Source: an uncultured Spartobacteria bacterium (GTDB lineage: Bacteria; Verrucomicrobiota; Verrucomicrobiia; Chthoniobacterales; Chthoniobacteraceae). From it: a stretch of 42,180 nucleotides of DNA. Under the pieces are notes generated by a model. The model saw only the letters and a program-made list of their open reading frames with translations, had not been told where the DNA came from and made no database searches. The stretch spans positions 1-42,180 of the forward strand of contig CAIRYQ010000090.1 in the NCBI GenBank assembly GCA_903882875.1, read 5' to 3'. Positions 1 through 23,564 of the stretch are shown piece after piece (positions within the stretch are counted from its first letter, which is position 1; each line of letters begins with the position of its first letter). A program made the position numbers and the translations under genes.

Positions 1-139
1 AGATCGAACGCACCTTTGCCTGGCTGGGCAACTACCGCCGCCTGGTCGTCCGTTACGAAAATCACCTCCTGATGTATCAAGCCTTCTTCCATGTCGCTTG
101 CTCGCTCATCACCCTTCGATACTTATGAAACCACTTCTA
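1..139 (+). mobile_element. Right end of an IS5-family insertion sequence
   Basis: The window opens inside an insertion sequence: the end of a DDE transposase is followed within about ten bases by sequence that belongs to the neighbouring restriction-modification gene. The element boundary is placed near 137-140 by inference. The transposase stops at 128, and from about 140 onward the minus strand reads naturally as methyltransferase. The other end lies outside the window, so the terminal inverted repeats and the target duplication cannot be compared. Confidence 0.7.
3..128 (+). CDS. IS5-family transposase, C-terminal fragment
   Basis: Only the last 41 codons are present; the gene starts before the window. 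The fragment begins IERTFAWLGNYRRLVVRYE, the characteristic C-terminal signature of IS5-family (IS4/IS5 superfamily DDE) transposases. In that signature the Glu is the third catalytic acidic residue, and R-F-W-L-R-R surrounds it. The frame ends in the TGA at 126-128. The protein would catalyse cut-and-paste movement of its element. Whether it is active cannot be judged because the first two catalytic Asp residues are outside the window. Its 3' end overlaps the stop codon of the converging restriction-modification gene (123-125). Confidence 0.8.
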   Translation: MERTFAWLGNYRRLVVRYENHLLMYQAFFHVACSLITLRYL

Positions 140-2378
140 CTACAATTTGGTCTATATCAGCTCCTCCGCCCGCAACGACCAGGGTCGTCGTATTGAGAAC
201 CTTTGTTGTGAAGATGTCTTTCCCGAGATTAACAACGCATCTCACTCCGTGATCCAGCAGTACCTTTCTGATTGGCTGCGTGTCCACTTGGTTCACCACC
301 GTGCTTGGGATGACATACCCAATTATTCCTCCCGGTCGAACTAGCCGAAGAACCTGATCCGTAAAGTAGATGTAGGAATCAACCATGCGCTGGACGACGC
401 GAGCGAACTTCCGGCTCAGATACCTCAATGCTTCAGACTTGAGGTCCGCTCCCCACGGCGGATTCCCCACGATGGCATCGAAGCCCCCATTCACCGGCTG
501 CGCCTTCGCCTTTGCCTCCTTCACCGGCTTGCGCTCGGAGTAGTCCACGGCTTCCCGCTGCGGCTCGGGTCCGACATCCACATGGAAGCCATCCGCGTCA
601 TCCTTCACACGGTCCGCGCCGCTCCACTTCGGGGCGAAGACCTGAGGGAAGGCGCTCTCGAAATCCATCGGGCAGAGCTTGCGTTCCTCCTCGGAGGAGA
701 ACTCGAACTGGCCGTAGAGCATGTCCGTGCCGACGAGGGAATTGCCGCGCTTGATGTTGCCGCCGAGAGGGGGGAGCAGCGCCTCGTGGAAGGCGAGGTA
801 GTCGTCGCGAGTGCTGGCAGTGGTCTCGTCCTCCAGCAGCTTCAGGTAGAGCGAGAGCTGCGCGACCTCCACGGCCTGCGGGTCGAGGTCCACGCCGAAG
901 ATGTTGTTCAGGAGGATCTGCCGCTTCTTCTCCAGCGTGAGGCAGAGCAGCCCCTCGCGCTCGGCCACGGCGGGGATGAATTCCTTCCTCCGCTTTTTGT
1001 TCTTCGTCGAGGGGGCGAGGTTTTCCTTCCGCGCGGCGTCGGGATTCGCGGCATACCAGCGCCCGTGGTGCCGGAGCAGGAGGTCGAAGATGCCGAGGAG
1101 GAAACTGCCGGAGCCACAGGCGATGTCGGCAAAGCGCATCTTCTCGACCTGCGCGGGAGTCTTTCCCTCGATGAGCTTCCCGACGGTTTGCTCGCAGATG
1201 TAGCGGACGATGTATTCCGGCGTGTAATAGACGCCGCCCGCCTTGCGCACCTCGGGCTTCAGCTCGGGCTTCGCGCGCTTGTCCGTCGTGGTGATGACGG
1301 TGCCGAGGAAGCGCTCGTAGATGCTCCCGAGGATGTGGATGGGGATGGTATTGAAATCGTAGGGCGAGCGCTCGTGCTCGAGTTCCTTGCAGATGGCGAC
1401 GAAGTCCGCGTCGTCCACCGCGAGCGAGCCGTCGTCCAGCCTCGGGTGGGACTTGAAGACGACGCCATTATAGCGGACATCCAGCTTGCGGGAGGCGGCG
1501 AGGAAGCTCGGCCAGACCTGTCCCGTCGCCGCCTTCGTGAACTGATGCACGCTGTGCTCGGTCTCGATGAGCTTGTCCTCCAGGAAACGGAGGAAGACCA
1601 GCCGGTCCAGGATGCGCTGCACCAGCTCGGTGAGCGCGTCTCCGTCGAGTTCCGCGTTGCGGTTCTTCAGCATCCGCGCGAGATCGCCGCGGTAGCGTTC
1701 GAGGTCGTCAAGGAAGGCGTCGTCGATCGTCTGCGAATCGCCGCCGCGCTTCCCGTCCTTTTGCTTGCCGCTCTTCTTCAGCTTCGGCATCGCCGCCACG
1801 TAGGCATCGAGCTTCCCGGTGACGACGGCCTCGCGGGAGAAAAGCCAGTAGATCTCGCCAAACTTCGCCTCGTCCTCGAAGTCCCCGTAGCAATAGCTGC
1901 GGTGCGCGGAGGTGAGCGCGAAATCAATGTTCGGCTTGCGGCGACAGTCCACGATGACCAGCTCCTGGAAATCAAACAGCACGGAGAGCTTTGACTTGGA
2001 GCCGTAGCCGTAGCGGTGCGTCTGGAAATGCGCGTCGCGGTCCTCGCGGATTTTCACGGAGGGCTTCTTCGCCTCGCAGTAGAAACGGGCGGTGCGGTAG
2101 TCCGGCCCGCGGAAGAAGGCGTAGTCCGCACGCTTCTGCGCAAGCCCGCCGCCCACCTGCACGCCGCGCTCCACCTTCACCTCCTGCTCGTAGGGATTCT
2201 TCTCCCGGTCGTGCCGCACATCCCAGCCGAGCGCGATCCAGAACTTGTCTATGAAGTCCTGGCGCGCCTCCGCCTCCTGATACTCCGACGAGAGGTAGAA
2301 CGGCTCCCGCGCACGGAAGTCCGCGATGAGTGCGCAGACCTGCGCATGGCTTTCCTGAAAGTTGCCGGGGATGTTCAT
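123..2378 (-). CDS. Type IIG/IIL-like restriction-modification protein, truncated at its C-terminus by an insertion sequence
   Basis: Single-chain restriction and N6-adenine methylation enzyme, 751 residues as it stands. The N-terminus looks like a PD-(D/E)XK nuclease: KRADYAFF near residue 83, then FYCEAKKP near 100 supplying the E-x-K. A helical linker follows. The Eco57I/N6-type methyltransferase core has GVYYTPEYIVRYICEQTVG, SAM-binding motif I (FADIACGSGSFLLGIF) and catalytic motif IV (DAIVGNPPWG). Relatives usually run on for 200-300 residues as a TaqI-like target-recognition domain; here the frame ends shortly after PGGIIGYVIPSTVV. Its last four or so codons and its stop are supplied by the end of the insertion sequence at 1-139. 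Start ATG at 2378 has no strong ribosome-binding site. Without the specificity domain it is probably inactive or non-specific. Motif assignments are seen; loss of function is inferred. Confidence 0.85.
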   Translation of the reverse strand: MNIPGNFQESHAQVCALIADFRAREPFYLSSEYQEAEARQDFIDKFWIALGWDVRHDREKNPYEQEVKVERGVQVGGGLAQKRADYAFFRGPDYRTARFYCEAKKPSVKIREDRDAHFQTHRYGYGSKSKLSVLFDFQELVIVDCRRKPNIDFALTSAHRSYCYGDFEDEAKFGEIYWLFSREAVVTGKLDAYVAAMPKLKKSGKQKDGKRGGDSQTIDDAFLDDLERYRGDLARMLKNRNAELDGDALTELVQRILDRLVFLRFLEDKLIETEHSVHQFTKAATGQVWPSFLAASRKLDVRYNGVVFKSHPRLDDGSLAVDDADFVAICKELEHERSPYDFNTIPIHILGSIYERFLGTVITTTDKRAKPELKPEVRKAGGVYYTPEYIVRYICEQTVGKLIEGKTPAQVEKMRFADIACGSGSFLLGIFDLLLRHHGRWYAANPDAARKENLAPSTKNKKRRKEFIPAVAEREGLLCLTLEKKRQILLNNIFGVDLDPQAVEVAQLSLYLKLLEDETTASTRDDYLAFHEALLPPLGGNIKRGNSLVGTDMLYGQFEFSSEEERKLCPMDFESAFPQVFAPKWSGADRVKDDADGFHVDVGPEPQREAVDYSERKPVKEAKAKAQPVNGGFDAIVGNPPWGADLKSEALRYLSRKFARVVQRMVDSYIYFTDQVLRLVRPGGIIGYVIPSTVVNQVDTQPIRKVLLDHGVRCVVNLGKDIFTTKVLNTTTLVVAGGGADIDQIVVEVVS

Positions 2379-16732: not shown

Positions 16733-19318
16733 TCAGCTCAGAGCCCGGCGCAATTCATCGGCACGTGCCCTGAGTCCTGGCGGGAGGTCGGCGGGCAACC
16801 GTTCGAGTCCGTGGTAGCGGAGGAATGCCGTGCGAATGGGATTTTTCTGAAACGGGGCGATGGCCAGATGGATCAGCGGGTGCGCAGGGTGGAGGGCATA
16901 AGCACGTTCGATGTCCGCCAGGTTCGCGCCGGGCACTATGAGTGAATCGGCAGCATCGCCGCATGTCGTCTTTGCACCGGGGCGGATGGGTCTTGCCGCA
17001 CCGTGCGCGAGGTGGTGGCGGGCAATATTGCCATACCTCGTGGCGTCCGTGGCGAGCGATCCGTCCAACGCCGCGCGGTGACGGCGCCACTCGTCGGAAG
17101 GGAGATCCACGGGCTCGCCGTCCGGATTCAGGGTGCGCGCCGCGAGCATGCGAAGAAAATCGGGGAACCACGCAGGCGCGGGGGTATTGGTGCCGAGCAT
17201 TTCCCAGACGCGCACCGTCCGATCGTCGGACGCGGTAAGCATTCGCGCGCCGTCCGCGCTGAAGCATGCGTGGCGGACTCTCGCGGCGTGGGTGGGAAAA
17301 ACGGCAACGAGTTTCCCCGACGCCGCTTCCCACAGGCGTGCAGTCTTGTCGTCCGAGGCGGTAACGATGCGCAGCCCATCCGGACTGAATTGCGCACTCC
17401 GCACGGTGCCTTCGTGACCGGAGAGCGTGAGCAGCATTTTTCTCGTGGCCGCATCCCAGACACGTGCAGTCTTGTCATCTGAAGCTGTGACGATACGCTG
17501 GCCGTCCGCACTGAACTGCGCGCTACGGATGGAATCCTGATGGCCTGAAAGGGCAGCAATTGCTTTTCCCGTGGAAAGATCCCAAATGCGCGCGCTTTTG
17601 TCCGCAGATGCAGTGATGACGAGCAGCCCGTCCGGGCTGAATTGCGCGCTCCACACGCACCCCTGATGGCCCTTGAGCCGCATCTCCGGCTCACCCGTCG
17701 CGGCGTCCCATACGCACGCTGTGTTGTCGGATGAGGCGGTGACAATGCGCAGCCCGTCGAGGCTGAATTGCGCGCTCCACACGGAGTCCTCGTGTTCGGA
17801 AAGTGTGAGCAGTCGCCTCGCGGTGCCGGCGTCCCATATGAATGCGGTCTTGTTGTAGCACGCGGTGACGACCCTCGATCCGTCCGGGCTGAACTGCGCG
17901 CCCATAACGGAGTCCTGCAGGTGCGAAAGTGTCGCGACGGCATTGCCGGTGGCGGAGTTCCAGATGCGCGCGGTCCGGTCGGAAGAGGCGGTGACGATGA
18001 ATGTTCCATCCGGGCTGAAACGCGCGCTCCTCACAGAATCCAGATGCCCGGAGAGCGTGTTGAGCGCCTTCTCACAGGAGGTGTCCCATATGCGAGCCGT
18101 CCCATCCGACGACGCGGTGACGATGCACTGCCCGTCGGGGCTGAATTGTGCGGACCAGATCGCGGCATGATGGCCGGGAAATACGGTGATCCATTTTCCC
18201 GTCGTCGCGTCCCATAGGCACGCCGTGCCATCCGCGGACGCGGTGGCAATGCGCAAGCCGTCGTCGCTGAATTGCGCCATGCTCACCGCGCGCTGGTGGA
18301 ATGCGAGCACCGCGGATTCCTTTCCCGCCGCCGCATCCCAGATGCGCGCGGTGTTGTCCGATGAGGCGGTGACGATGCGGGTCCCATCGGGGCTGAACTG
18401 CGCCCGGAGAACCGATTCCTGATGACCAGTGAGAGTCGAAAGGAGGCGTTCTCCGGCAACATCCCAGACGCACGCCGTCCGGTCATAGGATGCCGAGACG
18501 ACGCGCGAACTGTCCGGGCTGAACTGCGCATTCCACACGGCGCCCTGATGGCCGGAAAATGTGGCGACGGCTTTCCCATTCGCGACGGTCCAGACGATCG
18601 CGGTGTTGTCGGAGGATGCGGTGACTACGCGTTCACCATCCGAGCTGAATTGCGCGGAGCGGACAGCGTCTTTGTGGCCAGTGAGGATGGCCACACATTT
18701 TCCAGTTTCAGCTTCCCAAACGCGCACGGTGGATTCCTCGGACACCGTGACGACGCGCGAACCGTCGGGGCTGAATTGCGCGCTGCTCACGGCGCGCTCA
18801 TGACCAATGAGCGTGGCGATCATCGTTCCCGCCGCCGCATCCCATATTCGTGCGGTGCCATCCGCAGAGGCTGTCGCAACGTGCGAACCGTCGGGGCTGA
18901 ACTGCGCGTGGCTGACGGCGCGGGTATGGCCCGCGAGTGTAGTGATGAGTGTCCCGGCGGCTGCGTCCCACACGCATGCGGTATTGTCATACGATGCGGT
19001 CACCACGCGTGAGCCGTCCGGGCTGAACTGCGCGCTCCAGACGGCACCCTCGTGCTCGAGAATGGCGACCGGCGAATGGACGTCCGCAGAGTTCAACAAG
19101 GCGACCGCCTGCTCGGCAGCGAGCGTCGAATCCGGCGCGTATTCGCACGCGCGGGCGAGATGTGCGAGGGCATCGCGATGCAGGCCACGCTTCACGAGTT
19201 CGCGGGCCACGGCACGATCGGCTTGCGCGGCACCAGCCAGCAAGCCGAGAGCCCGCTCGTAGCGCACACGGATGTCGGAATCCGCGAGTGATTCGGAGTT
19301 GCTCGGCTCGTGAGGCAT
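16733..19318 (-). CDS. WD40-repeat protein with 15 near-uniform repeats (STAND partner)
   Basis: An 861-residue protein. Residues 1-75 form helices of TPR type (ARELVKRGLHRDALAHLARA). Then come 15 WD40 repeats of about 42 residues each, with the pattern L-x-G-H-x-x-x-V-x-x-A-Q-F-S-P-D-G-x-x-I/V-V-T-A-S-x-D-x-T-A-x-x-W-D. The C-terminal 150 residues are helical and degenerate TPR-like (PAHPLIHLAIAPFQ). Fifteen repeats would make two seven-bladed propellers plus an extra blade, or a 7+8 arrangement. No signal peptide or enzyme motif is seen. The start at 19318 lies 32 bases after the stop of the STAND NTPase gene on the same strand, so the two form an operon; in many bacteria these modules are fused in one chain. 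The likely role is a ligand-binding or scaffold partner of the NTPase. Confidence 0.88.
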   Translation of the reverse strand: MPHEPSNSESLADSDIRVRYERALGLLAGAAQADRAVARELVKRGLHRDALAHLARACEYAPDSTLAAEQAVALLNSADVHSPVAILEHEGAVWSAQFSPDGSRVVTASYDNTACVWDAAAGTLITTLAGHTRAVSHAQFSPDGSHVATASADGTARIWDAAAGTMIATLIGHERAVSSAQFSPDGSRVVTVSEESTVRVWEAETGKCVAILTGHKDAVRSAQFSSDGERVVTASSDNTAIVWTVANGKAVATFSGHQGAVWNAQFSPDSSRVVSASYDRTACVWDVAGERLLSTLTGHQESVLRAQFSPDGTRIVTASSDNTARIWDAAAGKESAVLAFHQRAVSMAQFSDDGLRIATASADGTACLWDATTGKWITVFPGHHAAIWSAQFSPDGQCIVTASSDGTARIWDTSCEKALNTLSGHLDSVRSARFSPDGTFIVTASSDRTARIWNSATGNAVATLSHLQDSVMGAQFSPDGSRVVTACYNKTAFIWDAGTARRLLTLSEHEDSVWSAQFSLDGLRIVTASSDNTACVWDAATGEPEMRLKGHQGCVWSAQFSPDGLLVITASADKSARIWDLSTGKAIAALSGHQDSIRSAQFSADGQRIVTASDDKTARVWDAATRKMLLTLSGHEGTVRSAQFSPDGLRIVTASDDKTARLWEAASGKLVAVFPTHAARVRHACFSADGARMLTASDDRTVRVWEMLGTNTPAPAWFPDFLRMLAARTLNPDGEPVDLPSDEWRRHRAALDGSLATDATRYGNIARHHLAHGAARPIRPGAKTTCGDAADSLIVPGANLADIERAYALHPAHPLIHLAIAPFQKNPIRTAFLRYHGLERLPADLPPGLRARADELRRALS
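17200..19075 (-). repeat. Tandem 126-bp coding repeat encoding 15 WD40 units
   Basis: Within the WD40 gene the DNA repeats with a period close to 126 bases (42 codons). The conserved core encodes AQFSPDGxRIVTASxDxTA; on the plus strand this appears as recurring ctgaactgcgcgctcc-type strings roughly every 126 bases. The uniformity across 15 units points to recent expansion or gene conversion and makes copy-number change by recombination or slippage likely. Confidence 0.85.
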
Positions 19319-19332
19319 TGGTGTTCAGCGTT

Positions 19333-19350
19333 CGCGGGAAAATGTCCGCG
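19333..19350. other. Short hairpin between the STAND and WD40 genes
   Basis: The sequence cgcgggaaaatgtccgcg forms a 5-bp stem (cgcgg/ccgcg) around an A/T-rich loop in the 32-base gap. A T-run follows on the plus strand, but both genes lie on the minus strand, where the hairpin is preceded by an A-run, so it is not a normal terminator for them. It might modulate translation of the WD40 gene. Confidence 0.35.
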
Positions 19351-22300
19351 CTATTTTTTCTGCGGCCGCAGTTGCGCCCTCACCTTTTCGAGGTTCTCGC
19401 GGAAAATGTCCGGCAATGTCACCATCGTCGCTGGAAGTTTTCCCGCCTTGCGGAGCGGCTCCACGAGTTCGACGGCCTCCGCAAAATTCTTTTCCGCGTC
19501 CGTGAGCTCGTGCTGTTTCTCCTGAATGGATGCCAGATTGGCGATGTTCACAATTCGCGCCAATTGCCACTCCGCGTTTTCCGAATCGCCGGCACAGAGT
19601 TTCCGCAACATCTCGATTGACCGCAGGAATTTTTTCTCCGCATCGGCGAGATTCCCCTGCTCCAGCTCGATGCTGCCGGCCTTTGTAAAACTCCTGCTCA
19701 GTTCAAACCTTGCACCGTTGCTGTCAGGATTGCTGTCCGACATCGCCTGAAAAATCCGCATCGCCTGCGCATGACTCTCGGCCGCGCCCTTCAAGTCCCC
19801 CCGTGATCGGAGAACATCGCCGCGGTTGCTGTAACTCACCGCCAGCGCGCGTTGGTCTTCGGCACCGGGCGCGGATGCGAGCTGGCTCAGGATTTTCTGC
19901 TCCTGTGCGAAGTGGGCTGCGGTGCCCTCGGCATCGCCCAGTTTCGTCGCAAGAATGCCCAGCTTGTCGTGAATCACGCTCAGGCTCAGTTGCCAGTTCC
20001 GGTTCTTCGCGTCGCGTTTCACCAATTCCCGCCGGATATTCAGCGCCTCGCCGTAGCTCTCGTCGGCGCTGTCATAATCCCCCTGCGCTGTCTGGGCGTC
20101 GCCCATCTTCGTGAGGCCCACACTTTGAAGATGCTGCCAGTCATCATTGTTCGTGTCGCGCGCCACGAGCTGCTTCGAGATGTCCAGCGCGTTTGTAAAA
20201 CTCAGAGTGGCTGCCTTGAAATCCGCGGCATCCATCTGCGTGTCGCCCGTCCGGATCGCATCCTCGGCGCGGCGCACCAACTGGACAGGATTGTTTTCGT
20301 CCACGTCCAGCTTCTTATAAACCTCGTCCACCCGCTTCTTCAGGTCTTGCAAAAAAATGGTGGGGCCTTTTTCCGACAGTTGCCTGTCCACGTTTCGCAC
20401 TTCATCCACAAAATCGAGCGCCACTTTGTACCTCGAGTCCGCAGTCTTTTTCGCCGCGGTGGCTTCGAGCGCCTCAGCCTTGGCCTGGGCGGACGCTTCG
20501 TCGGCGAGTTTCCGCAGGTCCTCCTCTGTTTTCCTCGCGACTATCGCCTCCTTCTCCCGTTGTGCGAGCGCACTAGCCTGCTCTGTGGCGCGCTTCGTGG
20601 CTTCCACGGCCAGTTTCCGCTGCGTGTCCGCGCTCGTGGCGGCATCCCGCGCCGCCTTCGTCTGGATCATTGCCACCGCGCCGCCTGCCAAGGCGATGCC
20701 AGTCAGAAAAGTCATCGCCGTGAACGCTATCCGGCGCCTCCGTTTTGCCGCACGCTCGCGTTCCTCCGCGTGCGCGATGGATGCCTCGATGTATTCGCGC
20801 TCAGTCGGCCCGAGGTCATCCTCGCGGGCGGCAAGGATTGTCCGTGCGTCTTCGAGCGGCTTGCCCGGCGAGAGGAGATACTCGGCGGCTCGGGCGTTTT
20901 CATTCCACGCCCGCAATCCCTCGCGGAGACGTGCGCGGGCGCGGAGAAAATCCCGGTTGCGCTCGATCCATTGCGAGGCGCGGGGCCAGCAGCGCAGCAG
21001 CGCCTCGTGCGAAAGTGTGACGATCGACTCGCCGCTGGACGCATCGCGATCGGTAAAAAAGAGACGCTCCTTCACAAATGCCGCGATCAATTTCGCGCGC
21101 TCGGGTGTGGACGCCGCGCTGTCCGTCAGAACACGCGCGCGGGTCGCCCCGGCATCAGTGTCCTCGCGCAGAGTCACAAGCGAGGAAAGGACTCCATCCA
21201 GCGCGGCCTGCACCGCGAGCTGCAGCGCCAGGAAGACGGCTTCCGCGCGATGTCCGAGCGCGCCTTCAACACCGCCAAGTTCGCGATATTGCGTCAGCGT
21301 AAGCGTGCCGTCGGAAGTGCGGCGCTCGAAGAGTTCACGCAACGCGTATTCGAGGAGCGGCAGCGCCTCGGGGTGCCGCGTCGCATCGTCCAGCAACAGC
21401 CGATCGAGCGCCGCGCCGGTGGAGCTGTCCTTTTCAAAGCGCAGCCCGGCGAGACTCGCGGGCGCCGTGATGATGCGGCGCAAATCGTCCGCATCCGGCA
21501 CGAGGAGATCGAATTGCCCGTGCGCGCCTTTCATCGCCATGAGACGCGGAAGCGTCTGGCATTGATCGTAGAAGTCCGAGCGCACCGTCGCGAGCACCCA
21601 CACCGAACCGGAACGCGCAAGCGCATCCACCGCGACGCTGAAAACTTCCCGATCGTCGGGACCGATGGCGCTGTGGCTGAAGAGTTCCTCGAACTGATCG
21701 ATCAGCAGAAAAAGCCGCACGCCGGTGCCGAGCGCATTTGGCAGCACGACGCGGCAGAAGAGCCTTGGATCCTCCCGCAGGCCGGCGGCGAGTGCATCGG
21801 GGCTCGTGCCGCTCTCGCGCAATTCCGGCAGCGCAGAGCACAACACGCTGGCGAGTCCGGCGCAGAGATCTCTTCCCGAGGTCCCGGGGATGAAAATCGC
21901 GTGCCGCCAAGCACGCACCGTTTCATCCACGTCGAACTGTGTCACCATCGGCAGCACGCCCGCGCGGGCGAGTGACGACTTGCCGCTGCCGCTCGCACCC
22001 ACAATGAGCACAAAGGCGCAACCCGCCGCCGCCTGATGACGCAGGGCGAGTTGCACGGAACAGATCTCATCCTCGCGTCCGAAAAAAATCCCCGCGTGCT
22101 GCGGCTCGAACACATCCAGTCCTCGGAAGGGCGCACCCATTTCGGAGAGATCCCACGTGGCCCCGCCGCCGTCGCCGAGCAGCCCGTCGAGAATCTCGCG
22201 CACATGCACACGCAGCCGGTGCGCGAACTCGACCGGCTTCGTATAGGTGTGGTGGGTGCGCGCCTTCGATCCCTGCAACGCGTCGGCCAGGTGCGCGGCG

Positions 22301-22752
22301 ATGAAATCCTCGGCGAGCTGCCGCTCGCGCAGCATATCCTCGAGGCTGTCGGGAGGCTGGCTTTTCTGCCGTTCAAGAAAGCCGTCCGGATCGTCGCGCG
22401 TATAGGCGAGAATCGCCGGGCGCATCCCACCGCTGGTCTCCCGGCTGGCAAGCACGAGCTGGAATTCGCGTTCCGTGCCGCCGGACTTTTTTCCAGAAGC
22501 GTCCGCCAGCGATCCGAGCTGCGACCACAGGATGAGCACCGCGATGTCGATGCCATGCTCCGGCGAAAGCATGAGATCGATTTTCTGCCGTGCCGTCATG
22601 TCCTCCTGCAGTTGCAGTTCTTCCCACGGCACCGAGATGAGCAGGAAACGCCCCTCATACCTGGGCTGAAGACTGGCGATCACATCGCGCGCTTTCTGCC
22701 GTTCATCCGCCACGTCCTCGGGACTGGAAATGAGTATGCGAATCGTTTTCAT
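19351..22752 (-). CDS. DUF4062-like/STAND NTPase with transmembrane, coiled-coil and TPR regions
   Basis: A 1133-residue multidomain protein. Residues 1-150 are DUF4062-like (IRILISSPEDVADERQKA; IDIAVLILWSQLG; SGGTEREFQLVLAS). Near 206-226, PFRGLDVFEPQHAGIFFGRE marks the start of an nSTAND1-type NTPase, with Walker A GASGSGKSS (Lys258) and Walker B FLLIDQFEEL (Asp352). Winged-helix/ARC-like sequence follows, including VTLSHEALLRCWPRASQW. A membrane segment lies near 673-695 (FTAMTFLTGIALAGGAVAMI), then an Ala/Lys/Glu-rich coiled coil (about 700-775), then TPR repeats to the end. STAND proteins are ATP-driven switches that oligomerise on ligand binding. ATG at 22752 is preferred over the GTG at 22779 because the DUF4062 strand begins there. 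It is followed by the WD40 gene. A conflict/defence or signalling role is inferred from architecture. Confidence 0.88.
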   Translation of the reverse strand: MKTIRILISSPEDVADERQKARDVIASLQPRYEGRFLLISVPWEELQLQEDMTARQKIDLMLSPEHGIDIAVLILWSQLGSLADASGKKSGGTEREFQLVLASRETSGGMRPAILAYTRDDPDGFLERQKSQPPDSLEDMLRERQLAEDFIAAHLADALQGSKARTHHTYTKPVEFAHRLRVHVREILDGLLGDGGGATWDLSEMGAPFRGLDVFEPQHAGIFFGREDEICSVQLALRHQAAAGCAFVLIVGASGSGKSSLARAGVLPMVTQFDVDETVRAWRHAIFIPGTSGRDLCAGLASVLCSALPELRESGTSPDALAAGLREDPRLFCRVVLPNALGTGVRLFLLIDQFEELFSHSAIGPDDREVFSVAVDALARSGSVWVLATVRSDFYDQCQTLPRLMAMKGAHGQFDLLVPDADDLRRIITAPASLAGLRFEKDSSTGAALDRLLLDDATRHPEALPLLEYALRELFERRTSDGTLTLTQYRELGGVEGALGHRAEAVFLALQLAVQAALDGVLSSLVTLREDTDAGATRARVLTDSAASTPERAKLIAAFVKERLFFTDRDASSGESIVTLSHEALLRCWPRASQWIERNRDFLRARARLREGLRAWNENARAAEYLLSPGKPLEDARTILAAREDDLGPTEREYIEASIAHAEERERAAKRRRRIAFTAMTFLTGIALAGGAVAMIQTKAARDAATSADTQRKLAVEATKRATEQASALAQREKEAIVARKTEEDLRKLADEASAQAKAEALEATAAKKTADSRYKVALDFVDEVRNVDRQLSEKGPTIFLQDLKKRVDEVYKKLDVDENNPVQLVRRAEDAIRTGDTQMDAADFKAATLSFTNALDISKQLVARDTNNDDWQHLQSVGLTKMGDAQTAQGDYDSADESYGEALNIRRELVKRDAKNRNWQLSLSVIHDKLGILATKLGDAEGTAAHFAQEQKILSQLASAPGAEDQRALAVSYSNRGDVLRSRGDLKGAAESHAQAMRIFQAMSDSNPDSNGARFELSRSFTKAGSIELEQGNLADAEKKFLRSIEMLRKLCAGDSENAEWQLARIVNIANLASIQEKQHELTDAEKNFAEAVELVEPLRKAGKLPATMVTLPDIFRENLEKVRAQLRPQKK

Positions 22753-22970: not shown

Positions 22971-23564
22971 ATGAACGCCATCCTGTCCTTTAAGAAAGTC
23001 TGTGTTACCTGTGTGACGCTCCTCGCTTTTGCCGGAGGCACGATTCTCATGACAAGCTGCAAGACTGCGGCGCTCGTGGGAGCCATCGCGGGTGCGGGCA
23101 CTGTCGTCGCGGTCGTGGTCGTCGCAAAGTACAAGGCGAACGAACGGCAGAAGACCGCCGCTACCGCGCGCGCACGCGCCGCAACAGTGGAACTCGCCGC
23201 ACACCCCGTTGCCGGCAAGCACCACGTCAAGGCGCAGGCTGCACCGAAAAAGAAAGCCGCCGCGGCGAATCCCGACGTCGTCGTCGCCGTGGAAAATCCA
23301 AAGCCTGAGCAACCCGCACGTCCCATTCCGAGCCCTGAGGAGATGGAAGAAGCGCTCACCCACAAGCTGCCGAAGTATCTCGCCGTACCCGTACCTAAGC
23401 AACAAATCGCCGCCGAGGAGAAGGGCGAGGCGACCTACATGCTCTGGGACACGCACCGCCAACAATTGGTTACCGACGATGTCTATGTACTGAAACACGA
23501 CGTACGCGCAGGGGTGACTGTGAGGCTGAATGGCGTCAAAGCGCACGTCGCCAGCGCCGAGTAG
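22971..23564 (+). CDS. Small predicted lipoprotein, Ala/Lys-rich
   Basis: A 197-residue protein of no recognised family. It has a hydrophobic N-terminus with a plausible lipobox, LMTSC near residue 30, followed at once by a second hydrophobic stretch (ALVGAIAGAGTVVAVVVVA, about 34-52). The middle is a low-complexity Ala/Lys/Pro-rich linker (APKKKAAAANP). The C-terminal domain has ATYMLWDTHRQQLVTDDVYVL and VRLNGVKAHVA, suggesting a small beta-rich module. It is probably anchored in the envelope. It is transcribed divergently from the STAND/WD40 operon, so shared regulation is possible but unproven. A hairpin lies about 20 bases after the stop. Confidence 0.65.
   Translation: MNAILSFKKVCVTCVTLLAFAGGTILMTSCKTAALVGAIAGAGTVVAVVVVAKYKANERQKTAATARARAATVELAAHPVAGKHHVKAQAAPKKKAAAANPDVVVAVENPKPEQPARPIPSPEEMEEALTHKLPKYLAVPVPKQQIAAEEKGEATYMLWDTHRQQLVTDDVYVLKHDVRAGVTVRLNGVKAHVASAE

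What the first reader, a model, noticed from the sequence alone, without database searches (positions are those of the whole stretch)
16733..22752. Split DUF4062-STAND-TM-TPR plus WD40 operon: candidate conflict or signalling system
The first gene joins a DUF4062-like N-terminus, an intact STAND NTPase (Lys258, Asp352), a membrane helix, a coiled coil and TPRs. The second is an almost pure 15-repeat WD40 sensor with TPR-like ends. STAND-plus-repeat proteins are known switches in bacterial immunity and programmed death. Here the sensor is on a separate chain, the NTPase is membrane-tethered, and no separate toxin gene is present, so the DUF4062 part or the membrane segment could be the effector. 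A crippled restriction system lies 17 kb away, outside any tight defence island.
Basis: partly seen in the sequence, partly recalled or inferred. Interest (0 to 1): 0.65.

Follow-up and report, generated by a model that had tools for sequence, protein, structure and literature searches.

The report
Two-gene TIR-like STAND switch, WD40 split
Two neighbouring bacterial genes encode the parts of an apoptosome-like alarm protein: one carries a probable NAD-destroying domain, an ATP-driven switch and a membrane anchor, and the WD40 sensor that relatives carry in the same chain has become a separate protein; what it senses, and whether it fights phages, is unknown.

Summary
Gene 1 (22752..19351, 1133 aa) is DUF4062 - nSTAND1 (Walker Lys258, Asp352) - one membrane helix - TPR. 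Gene 2 (19318..16733, 861 aa) has 15 WD40 repeats of exactly 42 residues. A 32-nt gap and a frame change separate them. In relatives the same core carries a WD40 or a TPR sensor in one chain; the core's nearest full-length relative is a fused 1790-aa WD40 protein matching both window proteins. A congener's assembly shows the split (end of gene 1, then a separate WD40 gene; dN/dS 0.18-0.37), so it is neither an assembly error nor decay; a small divergent lipoprotein-like gene is also shared. I found this split only in these two genomes. A 2026 preprint shows DUF4062 proteins are TIR-like NADases (Swarozyc antiphage system, human TEP1), so DUF4062 is the likely effector. Best reading: a STAND-gated NADase with its WD40 sensor or lid in trans. 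Against a confident defence claim: no defence genes close by, no enrichment test, Asp at the predicted catalytic Glu in the congener, inactive DUF4062 in human NWD1, NWD2 and NPHP3, and a sub-threshold DUF4062 score for the window protein. New variant of a known kind.

The parts
19351..22752 (-). Gene 1 (P0001, 1133 aa): DUF4062 - nSTAND1 - membrane helix - coiled linker - TPR
22153..22752 (-). DUF4062 / TIR-like N-terminal domain (residues 1-200; profile match 5-98), predicted effector
   Evidence: PF13271 E 0.013 for the window member (below cut-off); 15 of 17 family members match at E<=1, best 3.1e-6
22465..22467 (-). Glu96 codon, predicted catalytic Glu (T-x-x-E of DUF4062)
   Evidence: invariant in the 17 rows of A1; 22 of the 25 rows with a DUF4062-like N-terminus; a weak profile-profile alignment (probability 1%) puts it on the Glu of canonical DUF4062s of the same genome
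20887..22131 (-). nSTAND1 NTPase (residues 208-622); Walker A 252-259 with Lys258, Walker B 352-356 with Asp352
20674..20730 (-). Single membrane helix (residues 675-693), Arg/Lys-rich on its N-terminal side
19354..20265 (-). TPR region (residues 830-1133)
   Evidence: similar to TPR parts of 8 core-bearing relatives, E 2e-8 to 9e-30
19319..19350 (.). 32-nt gap between the genes; frame change and TGA before gene 2's ATG
16733..19318 (-). Gene 2 (P0002, 861 aa): free-standing WD40 protein without membrane helix or evident signal peptide (the latter by eye)
19055..19318 (-). Head of gene 2 (residues 1-88), like the stretch in front of the WD40 array of fused relatives
   Evidence: 43% to L072 residues 735-791, E 5e-4; alignment with L021 starts at residue 49
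17165..19054 (-). 15 WD40 repeats (residues 89-718), 42 residues each, probably two propellers
   Evidence: model with two better-scored blocks, about 90-335 and 430-700
16736..17164 (-). Tail domain of gene 2 (residues 719-861), shared with fused WD40 relatives
   Evidence: L084 E 7e-9 and L085 E 1e-10
22971..23564 (+). Divergent 197-aa lipoprotein-like gene, probable third member of the conserved unit
   Evidence: 51% relative beside the start of gene 1 in congener G415; strong match in 2 of 210 order genomes; no Pfam match

Best explanation
The two genes form a STAND-gated TIR-like NADase whose WD40 sensor has become a separate protein. Proposed mechanism: at rest the nSTAND1 domain of gene 1 is held closed, with the WD40 protein docked on it as a lid in trans, as WD40 propellers do in cis in APAF-1. 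A signal read by the TPR part and/or the WD40 protein releases it, nSTAND1 binds ATP and oligomerises at the membrane, the DUF4062 domains pair and hydrolyse NAD+, and the cell stops growing or dies. Shown: the domains, intact NTPase motifs, a conserved Glu, fused WD40 relatives, the split in a second genome and purifying selection on both genes. Inferred: the two chains bind each other, NADase activity, and the immune or cell-death role.
For: nSTAND1 308.8 bits and conserved Walker residues. DUF4062 in 15 of 17 family N-termini at E<=1, predicted catalytic Glu in 22 of 25. Fused sibling L021 matches P0001 1-803 and P0002 49-841, both 45%, and its core is the nearest full-length one to the window's (52%; support 90/86). 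7 relatives and one (L163) carry the core plus 12-16 detected WD40 repeats in one chain. Congener G415: end of gene 1, 46 nt, separate WD40 gene at 69%; dN/dS (NG86) 0.18-0.20 for gene 2 and 0.27-0.37 for gene 1. WD40 modules related to gene 2 sit behind canonical TIR domains in 4 of the 10 stretches scanned. Preprint PMC13174449 (Summary to Discussion read): DUF4062 = TIR-like NADase, antiphage Swarozyc, TEP1 = DUF4062-NACHT-WD40. Patchy: 2 of the 10 same-genus genomes shown.
Against: The congener's gene 1 has Asp instead of Glu96 and Ala instead of Glu94. In the preprint NWD1, NWD2 and NPHP3 showed no NADase activity. The window's DUF4062 score is below Pfam's cut-off and was missed by two searches; the fold model of the core is poor (pLDDT 56). 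No defence genes close by and no enrichment shown for relatives. Nothing shows that the two chains bind. If the membrane helix puts the TPR part outside the cytoplasm, the two proposed sensors lie on opposite sides of the membrane.
Confidence: 0.5

Rival explanations
1. A membrane STAND receptor for stress, envelope or developmental signalling, not defence: the DUF4062 domain makes or clears a nucleotide signal, and the cell does not die.
For: The genes around the pair are of other kinds (PQQ, DUF1501, PSCyt/PSD1), and metabolic and surface families are among the 25 of 95 Pfam families shown for relatives' neighbours. Related WD40 modules also sit on protein kinases (L122, L026).
Against: Patchy distribution (2 of 10 genus genomes; 10 of 387 phylum genomes at E<=1e-20). 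The characterised bacterial DUF4062 proteins are antiphage NADases (PMC13174449).
Confidence: 0.25
2. The DUF4062 domain is a non-catalytic oligomerisation or adaptor domain, as may be the case in NWD1, NWD2 and NPHP3, and the output is recruitment of another protein or a membrane effect.
For: The congener has Glu96 to Asp; 3 of 25 rows with a DUF4062-like N-terminus lack the Glu (L079 D, L086 V, L088 D). NWD1, NWD2 and NPHP3 gave no NAD+ hydrolysis in the preprint.
Against: 22 of 25 rows keep the Glu, the window included. No candidate partner effector in the unit apart from the lipoprotein-like gene.
Confidence: 0.2
3. Gene 2 is a WD40 protein left over from a sensor exchange (TPR gained, WD40 detached) that no longer works with gene 1.
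For: TPR and WD40 sensors interchange on the core tree (at least 5 changes among 18 labelled rows), so a leftover is expected. The split was seen only in this genus.
Against: In G415 a separate WD40 gene lies directly behind the end of gene 1, and gene 2 has the lower dN/dS (0.18-0.20 against 0.27-0.37, rough values).
Confidence: 0.12
4. Artefact: one gene broken by a sequencing or assembly error.
For: Fused relatives exist.
Against: Frame change plus upstream TGA, and the same split in another species' assembly.
Confidence: 0.02

Closest known systems
Fused DUF4062-nSTAND1-WD40 proteins of relatives (here L021, L073, L083, L084, L085, L087, L163; L072 without a detected membrane helix)
   Same: Same core, similar WD40 array (12-16 detected repeats); linker similarity shown for L072, tail similarity for L084 and L085, both in part for L021
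   Different: One chain with the sensor behind the membrane helix; the window has TPRs there and WD40 in a second gene
Human TEP1 / NWD1 (DUF4062-NACHT-WD40) and APAF-1
   Same: Effector - STAND ATPase - WD40 order; two predicted propellers; full-length Apaf-1 (3sfz) is the second Foldseek match of the P0002 model, although WD40 matches are generic and TM-scores are about 0.3
   Different: Two chains, nSTAND1 instead of NACHT/NB-ARC, a membrane helix and TPRs
Swarozyc (KpSwz), bacterial DUF4062 antiphage NADase
   Same: DUF4062 domain with a conserved Glu
   Different: KpSwz has stalk helices and a winged helix-turn-helix auxiliary domain that binds phage portals, with no STAND domain described in the parts read; here STAND, TM, TPR and WD40
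Fungal NWD/HNWD receptors (HET-E, HET-D)
   Same: WD40-sensing STAND receptors; the fused sibling L021 has near-identical repeats that vary at a few positions
   Different: P0002's own repeats are only 52% identical on average; different effector and NTPase domain

Membership tests
nSTAND1 (PF20703) STAND NTPases | Profile match over curated cut-off | tested here: met
   308.8 bits, cut-off 27.1
nSTAND1 (PF20703) STAND NTPases | Intact Walker A and B | tested here: met
   Lys258, Asp352, Glu355 in 27 of 27 covered rows
DUF4062 TIR-like NADases (PF13271) | Profile match | tested here: inconclusive
   Window N-terminus 16.2 bits against 24.7, missed; 15 of 17 family members match at E<=1, best E 3.1e-6
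DUF4062 TIR-like NADases (PF13271) | Conserved catalytic Glu | tested here: met
   Glu96; 22 of 25 rows. Equation with KpSwz E97 is inferred; that sequence was not fetched
DUF4062 TIR-like NADases (PF13271) | TIR-like fold | tested here: inconclusive
   Model of the core from 4 sequences, mean pLDDT 56; no usable PDB sequence match for the domain
DUF4062 TIR-like NADases (PF13271) | NAD+ hydrolysis | not testable with these tools
   Needs an assay
Swarozyc antiphage system | DUF4062 plus portal-binding winged-HTH auxiliary domain | tested here: not met
   Pfam finds only nSTAND1/AAA and TPR domains in gene 1
Swarozyc antiphage system | Phage protection | not testable with these tools
   Needs phage challenge
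TEP1/NWD1/APAF-1-like receptors | Effector, STAND and WD40 in one chain | tested here: not met
   Two chains in the window and at the G415 contig that shows the junction; one chain in 7 relatives and in L163
Known defence systems in PADLOC-DB 2.0.0 | Match to a specific system model | tested here: not met
   Gene 1: a P-loop stretch (mad3) and a generic TPR model; gene 2: a HEAT/ARM-named model

The most novel reading that the evidence does not exclude
The window shows sensor exchange in progress in a membrane-bound, apoptosome-like receptor. A TPR sensor has taken the place behind the membrane helix, and the former WD40 sensor has been kept as a separate cytosolic chain, giving a dual-input NADase receptor (TPR outside, WD40 inside) with a divergent lipoprotein as third part. 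It would be a natural two-chain counterpart of TEP1/APAF-1-type receptors in which sensor and executioner can be separated genetically.
Probability: 0.22. Interest if true: 0.75.

Novelty: new variant of a known kind. Interest (0 to 1): 0.52.

Why it matters
How WD40 sensors gate STAND ATPases in TEP1-type proteins is open (the preprint only speculates on it). A natural version with the sensor on its own chain lets one add, remove or swap the sensor and test inhibition in trans. The family also shows bacterial receptors exchanging TPR and WD40 sensors on a conserved DUF4062-STAND core.

Tried and rejected
Single-gene-with-frameshift: rejected (frame change, upstream TGA, congener). Hypervariable sensor in P0002: between P0002 and the G415 genes the five HET-like positions differ in 27 of 75 cells against 169 of 555 elsewhere, so no clear excess; within P0002 these positions are among the variable ones but others vary as much. 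Which fused protein gave rise to P0002: the tail tree is unresolved apart from the G415 sister (17 rows, 4 of 21 in the set left out). Defence-neighbour test: 114 proteins near 18 relatives (123 listed, 9 not passed on, among them the kinase-WD40 neighbour of L026). 59 PADLOC models matched, 25 shown, none in more than 2 of 114 proteins (phospholipase, subtilase and mad8 models in 2; methylase, mad3 and PDC-S40 models in 1); the number of different proteins hit is not given, and no control set was run, so no enrichment figure. Empty-site test in congeners: the flanking genes have only distant relatives there (45% or less). Viral contigs: no DUF4062-bearing relative among the loci confirmed (4 nSTAND1 loci and none). 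Plasmids: 158 records match; 19 of the 20 shown start at residue 173 or later of the query, so mostly nSTAND1 alone; phages: 3 records, nSTAND1 alone. Genome contigs gave one relative.

Profile-profile comparison of the family's N-termini with three canonical DUF4062s was weak (hhalign probability 1%). Structure: P0002 pLDDT 65, core pLDDT 56; the core model was not used for fold search. In the membrane-topology count 6 core proteins were left out: L072, L080, L081 (no helix found there) and L074, L078, L079 (end motif not found).
Full report
Observation. The two ORFs are real and correctly placed. Gene 1 (22752..19351, minus strand) is 1133 aa: DUF4062-like N-terminus, nSTAND1 208-622 (308.8 bits), a hydrophobic helix at 675-693, a coiled linker and TPRs. 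Gene 2 (19318..16733) is 861 aa with 15 WD40 repeats of 42 residues. The gap is 32 nt and gene 2 is in another frame with a TGA just before its ATG. The own genome has only this one nSTAND1 gene over the cut-off.

DUF4062. The window protein alone is weak: no match at E<=0.01 for the whole protein, none in the genome search that found three other DUF4062 genes over the cut-off, 16.2 against 24.7 bits for the isolated N-terminus. But 15 of 17 family N-termini match PF13271 at the permissive E<=1, best E 3.1e-6. The motif is SGTExEF. Position 96 is Glu in all 17 rows of A1 and in 22 of 25 rows with a DUF4062-like N-terminus in the larger alignment; the exceptions are L079 (Asp), L086 (Val) and L088 (Asp) (rows L075, L025 and L031, which look unlike DUF4062 there, not counted). 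In a weak profile comparison this Glu falls on the Glu of canonical DUF4062s in the same genome. The preprint PMC13174449 (Summary to Discussion read; passages) reports that DUF4062 is a TIR-like NADase family, that bacterial Swarozyc proteins are antiphage NADases (KpSwz is activated by a phage portal), and that human TEP1 (DUF4062-NACHT-WD40) is active while NWD1, NWD2 and NPHP3 were not.

Family. The core was found in 10 of 387 phylum genomes (E<=1e-20), 18 of 213 order genomes (E<=1e-15) and 9 of 384 class genomes (E<=1e-60); these counts include the window's own genome, the samples overlap, and some matches lack DUF4062. In the genus it is in 2 of the 10 genomes shown. I fetched 32 regions; one (L082) gave no core ORF in its table. 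7 proteins carry the core and 12-16 detected WD40 repeats in one chain (L083 cut by a contig end); L023, L025 and L031 have 1-6 detected repeats; 8 carry a TPR part similar to that of P0001. Of four further regions, L163 is fused with 14 repeats and none shows a split.

Split. L021 (G083) is a 1790-aa fusion that matches P0001 1-803 and P0002 49-841, 45% each; its core is the sister of the window's (90/86) in a clade with L022 and L071 (100/99). WD40 and TPR types interleave on that tree: at least 5 changes among 18 labelled rows (9 of 24 inner branches are weak). Gene 2 keeps a head like the stretch before the WD40 array of a fused protein and a tail like theirs. Which fused protein it came from is unresolved. 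In congener G415, contig L111 has the end of gene 1, 46 nt, then a WD40 gene 69% identical to P0002; L088 has the start of gene 1; L112 has the end of a WD40 gene that overlaps L111 at only 75%, so G415 seems to hold two copies. That L088 and L111 belong to one gene is inferred. dN/dS (NG86) is 0.18-0.20 for gene 2 (tail 0.30, head 0.24) and 0.27-0.37 for gene 1; dS is near or above 1, so values are rough. Two results qualify the claim that the split is unique: beside L026 a kinase-WD40 gene, and beside L021 a 1722-aa protein with weak similarity to P0002, are encoded next to the core gene on the same strand (the kinase). Neither is a free WD40 protein like gene 2.

Third gene. A divergent 197-aa lipoprotein-like gene (22971-23564, plus strand) lies beside gene 1 here and in G415 (51%). 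Strong matches occur in 2 of 210 order genomes, weak partial ones in 10 more; the other eight congeners shown have none. Apart from these genes the G415 contigs matched nothing else in the window at E<=1e-8. That it is a lipoprotein is my reading of its N-terminus (recalled rule).

Topology. Lys/Arg counts are higher before the helix than after it in 18 of 19 core proteins in which the script found both the end motif and a helix, the exception being L087 (my count from its rows; six core proteins and the partial rows L111 and L121 not counted). By the positive-inside rule (recalled) the DUF4062 and NTPase parts are cytosolic and the TPRs outside. Gene 2 has no membrane helix or evident signal peptide, so it is probably cytosolic. 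L072, L080 and L081 show no helix there, so the anchor is not universal.

Context. Neighbours in the window include PSD1/PSCyt2, DUF1501, PQQ, DUF2252, thymidylate synthase, DHFR, PDZ/trypsin-like, Omp85 and TamB genes. Of 18 ORFs given to PADLOC (8, 10) only 123-2378 matches defence models well (type IIG restriction-methylase, 446.6 bits); the pair itself has only generic matches. Among 114 proteins near 18 relatives, 59 PADLOC models match, none in more than 2 proteins (25 shown); no control was run. Four single-chain proteins with related WD40 modules have canonical TIR domains, two have kinases (ten stretches scanned).

Structure. The P0002 model (single sequence, pLDDT 65) shows two propeller blocks with an uncertain middle. 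Foldseek's first matches are 2ymu and full-length Apaf-1, with low TM-scores. The core model is poor.

Literature. Searches of the held library for DUF4062 with STAND and WD40, nSTAND1, STAND/WD40/conflict systems, STAND NTPase/antiphage, Verrucomicrobia/WD40/TIR and DUF4062 alone listed no title or abstract start on a split DUF4062-STAND / WD40 pair. I saw passages of PMC10907252, PMC7159879, PMC8195603, PMC12222747 and PMC4986451. Supplements and subscription journals were not seen.

Verdict. A real two-gene variant, conserved in two species of one genus, of a known kind of receptor. The NADase-switch reading is likely, the defence role plausible but unproven, and the trans arrangement is the new element.

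Noticed in passing
L021:8279-13651 (G083): 15 WD40 repeats with mean DNA identity 0.85; codon differences at repeat positions 3, 4, 6, 22, 24 are 434 nonsynonymous to 15 synonymous, elsewhere 398 to 500 (pairs not independent). The spacing fits the fungal HET sites 11, 12, 14, 30, 32 (PMC12222747, passage) if the register is shifted by 8, which I took from recall.
   Followed up: partly
L119:10870-15807 (G083): A 1645-aa protein with DUF4062 over Pfam's cut-off, NACHT/AAA, weak NWD1-HTH and NPHP3 matches, and WD40-like repeats similar to P0002: a bacterial TEP1/NWD1-like architecture.
   Followed up: no
L117, L118, L119:2530-6669, L123: Canonical TIR domains in one chain with WD40 modules related to that of gene 2.
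   Followed up: no
L038, L039, L040 (own genome): Three other DUF4062 proteins over the cut-off; L039 and L040 continue into TPR-like repeats, L038 and L039 show a hydrophobic segment (both by eye).
   Followed up: no
window 123-2378: 751-aa ORF matching type IIG restriction-methylase models (446.6 bits, residues 9-581 to 5-530 of 1011 in the best stretch) and Eco57I/N6-methylase; shorter than the model, so perhaps truncated.
   Followed up: partly
window 19340-19415: A short near-repeat, GGACATTTTCC followed by a CG-rich stretch, at the end of gene 1 and again in the gap before gene 2 (by eye).
   Followed up: no
L121:3-2954 (own genome, contig C24): A second WD40 protein like gene 2, with a membrane helix and linker in front and its N-terminus cut by the contig end.
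   Followed up: partly
L020:9731-13183 and L161:1175-4474: The same core with a different helical C-terminal part, possibly of the squalene-cyclase-like repeat kind (by eye): a third sensor type.
   Followed up: no
L026:11872-14733: A 953-aa protein kinase with WD40-like repeats encoded directly upstream of a core gene, same strand.
   Followed up: no
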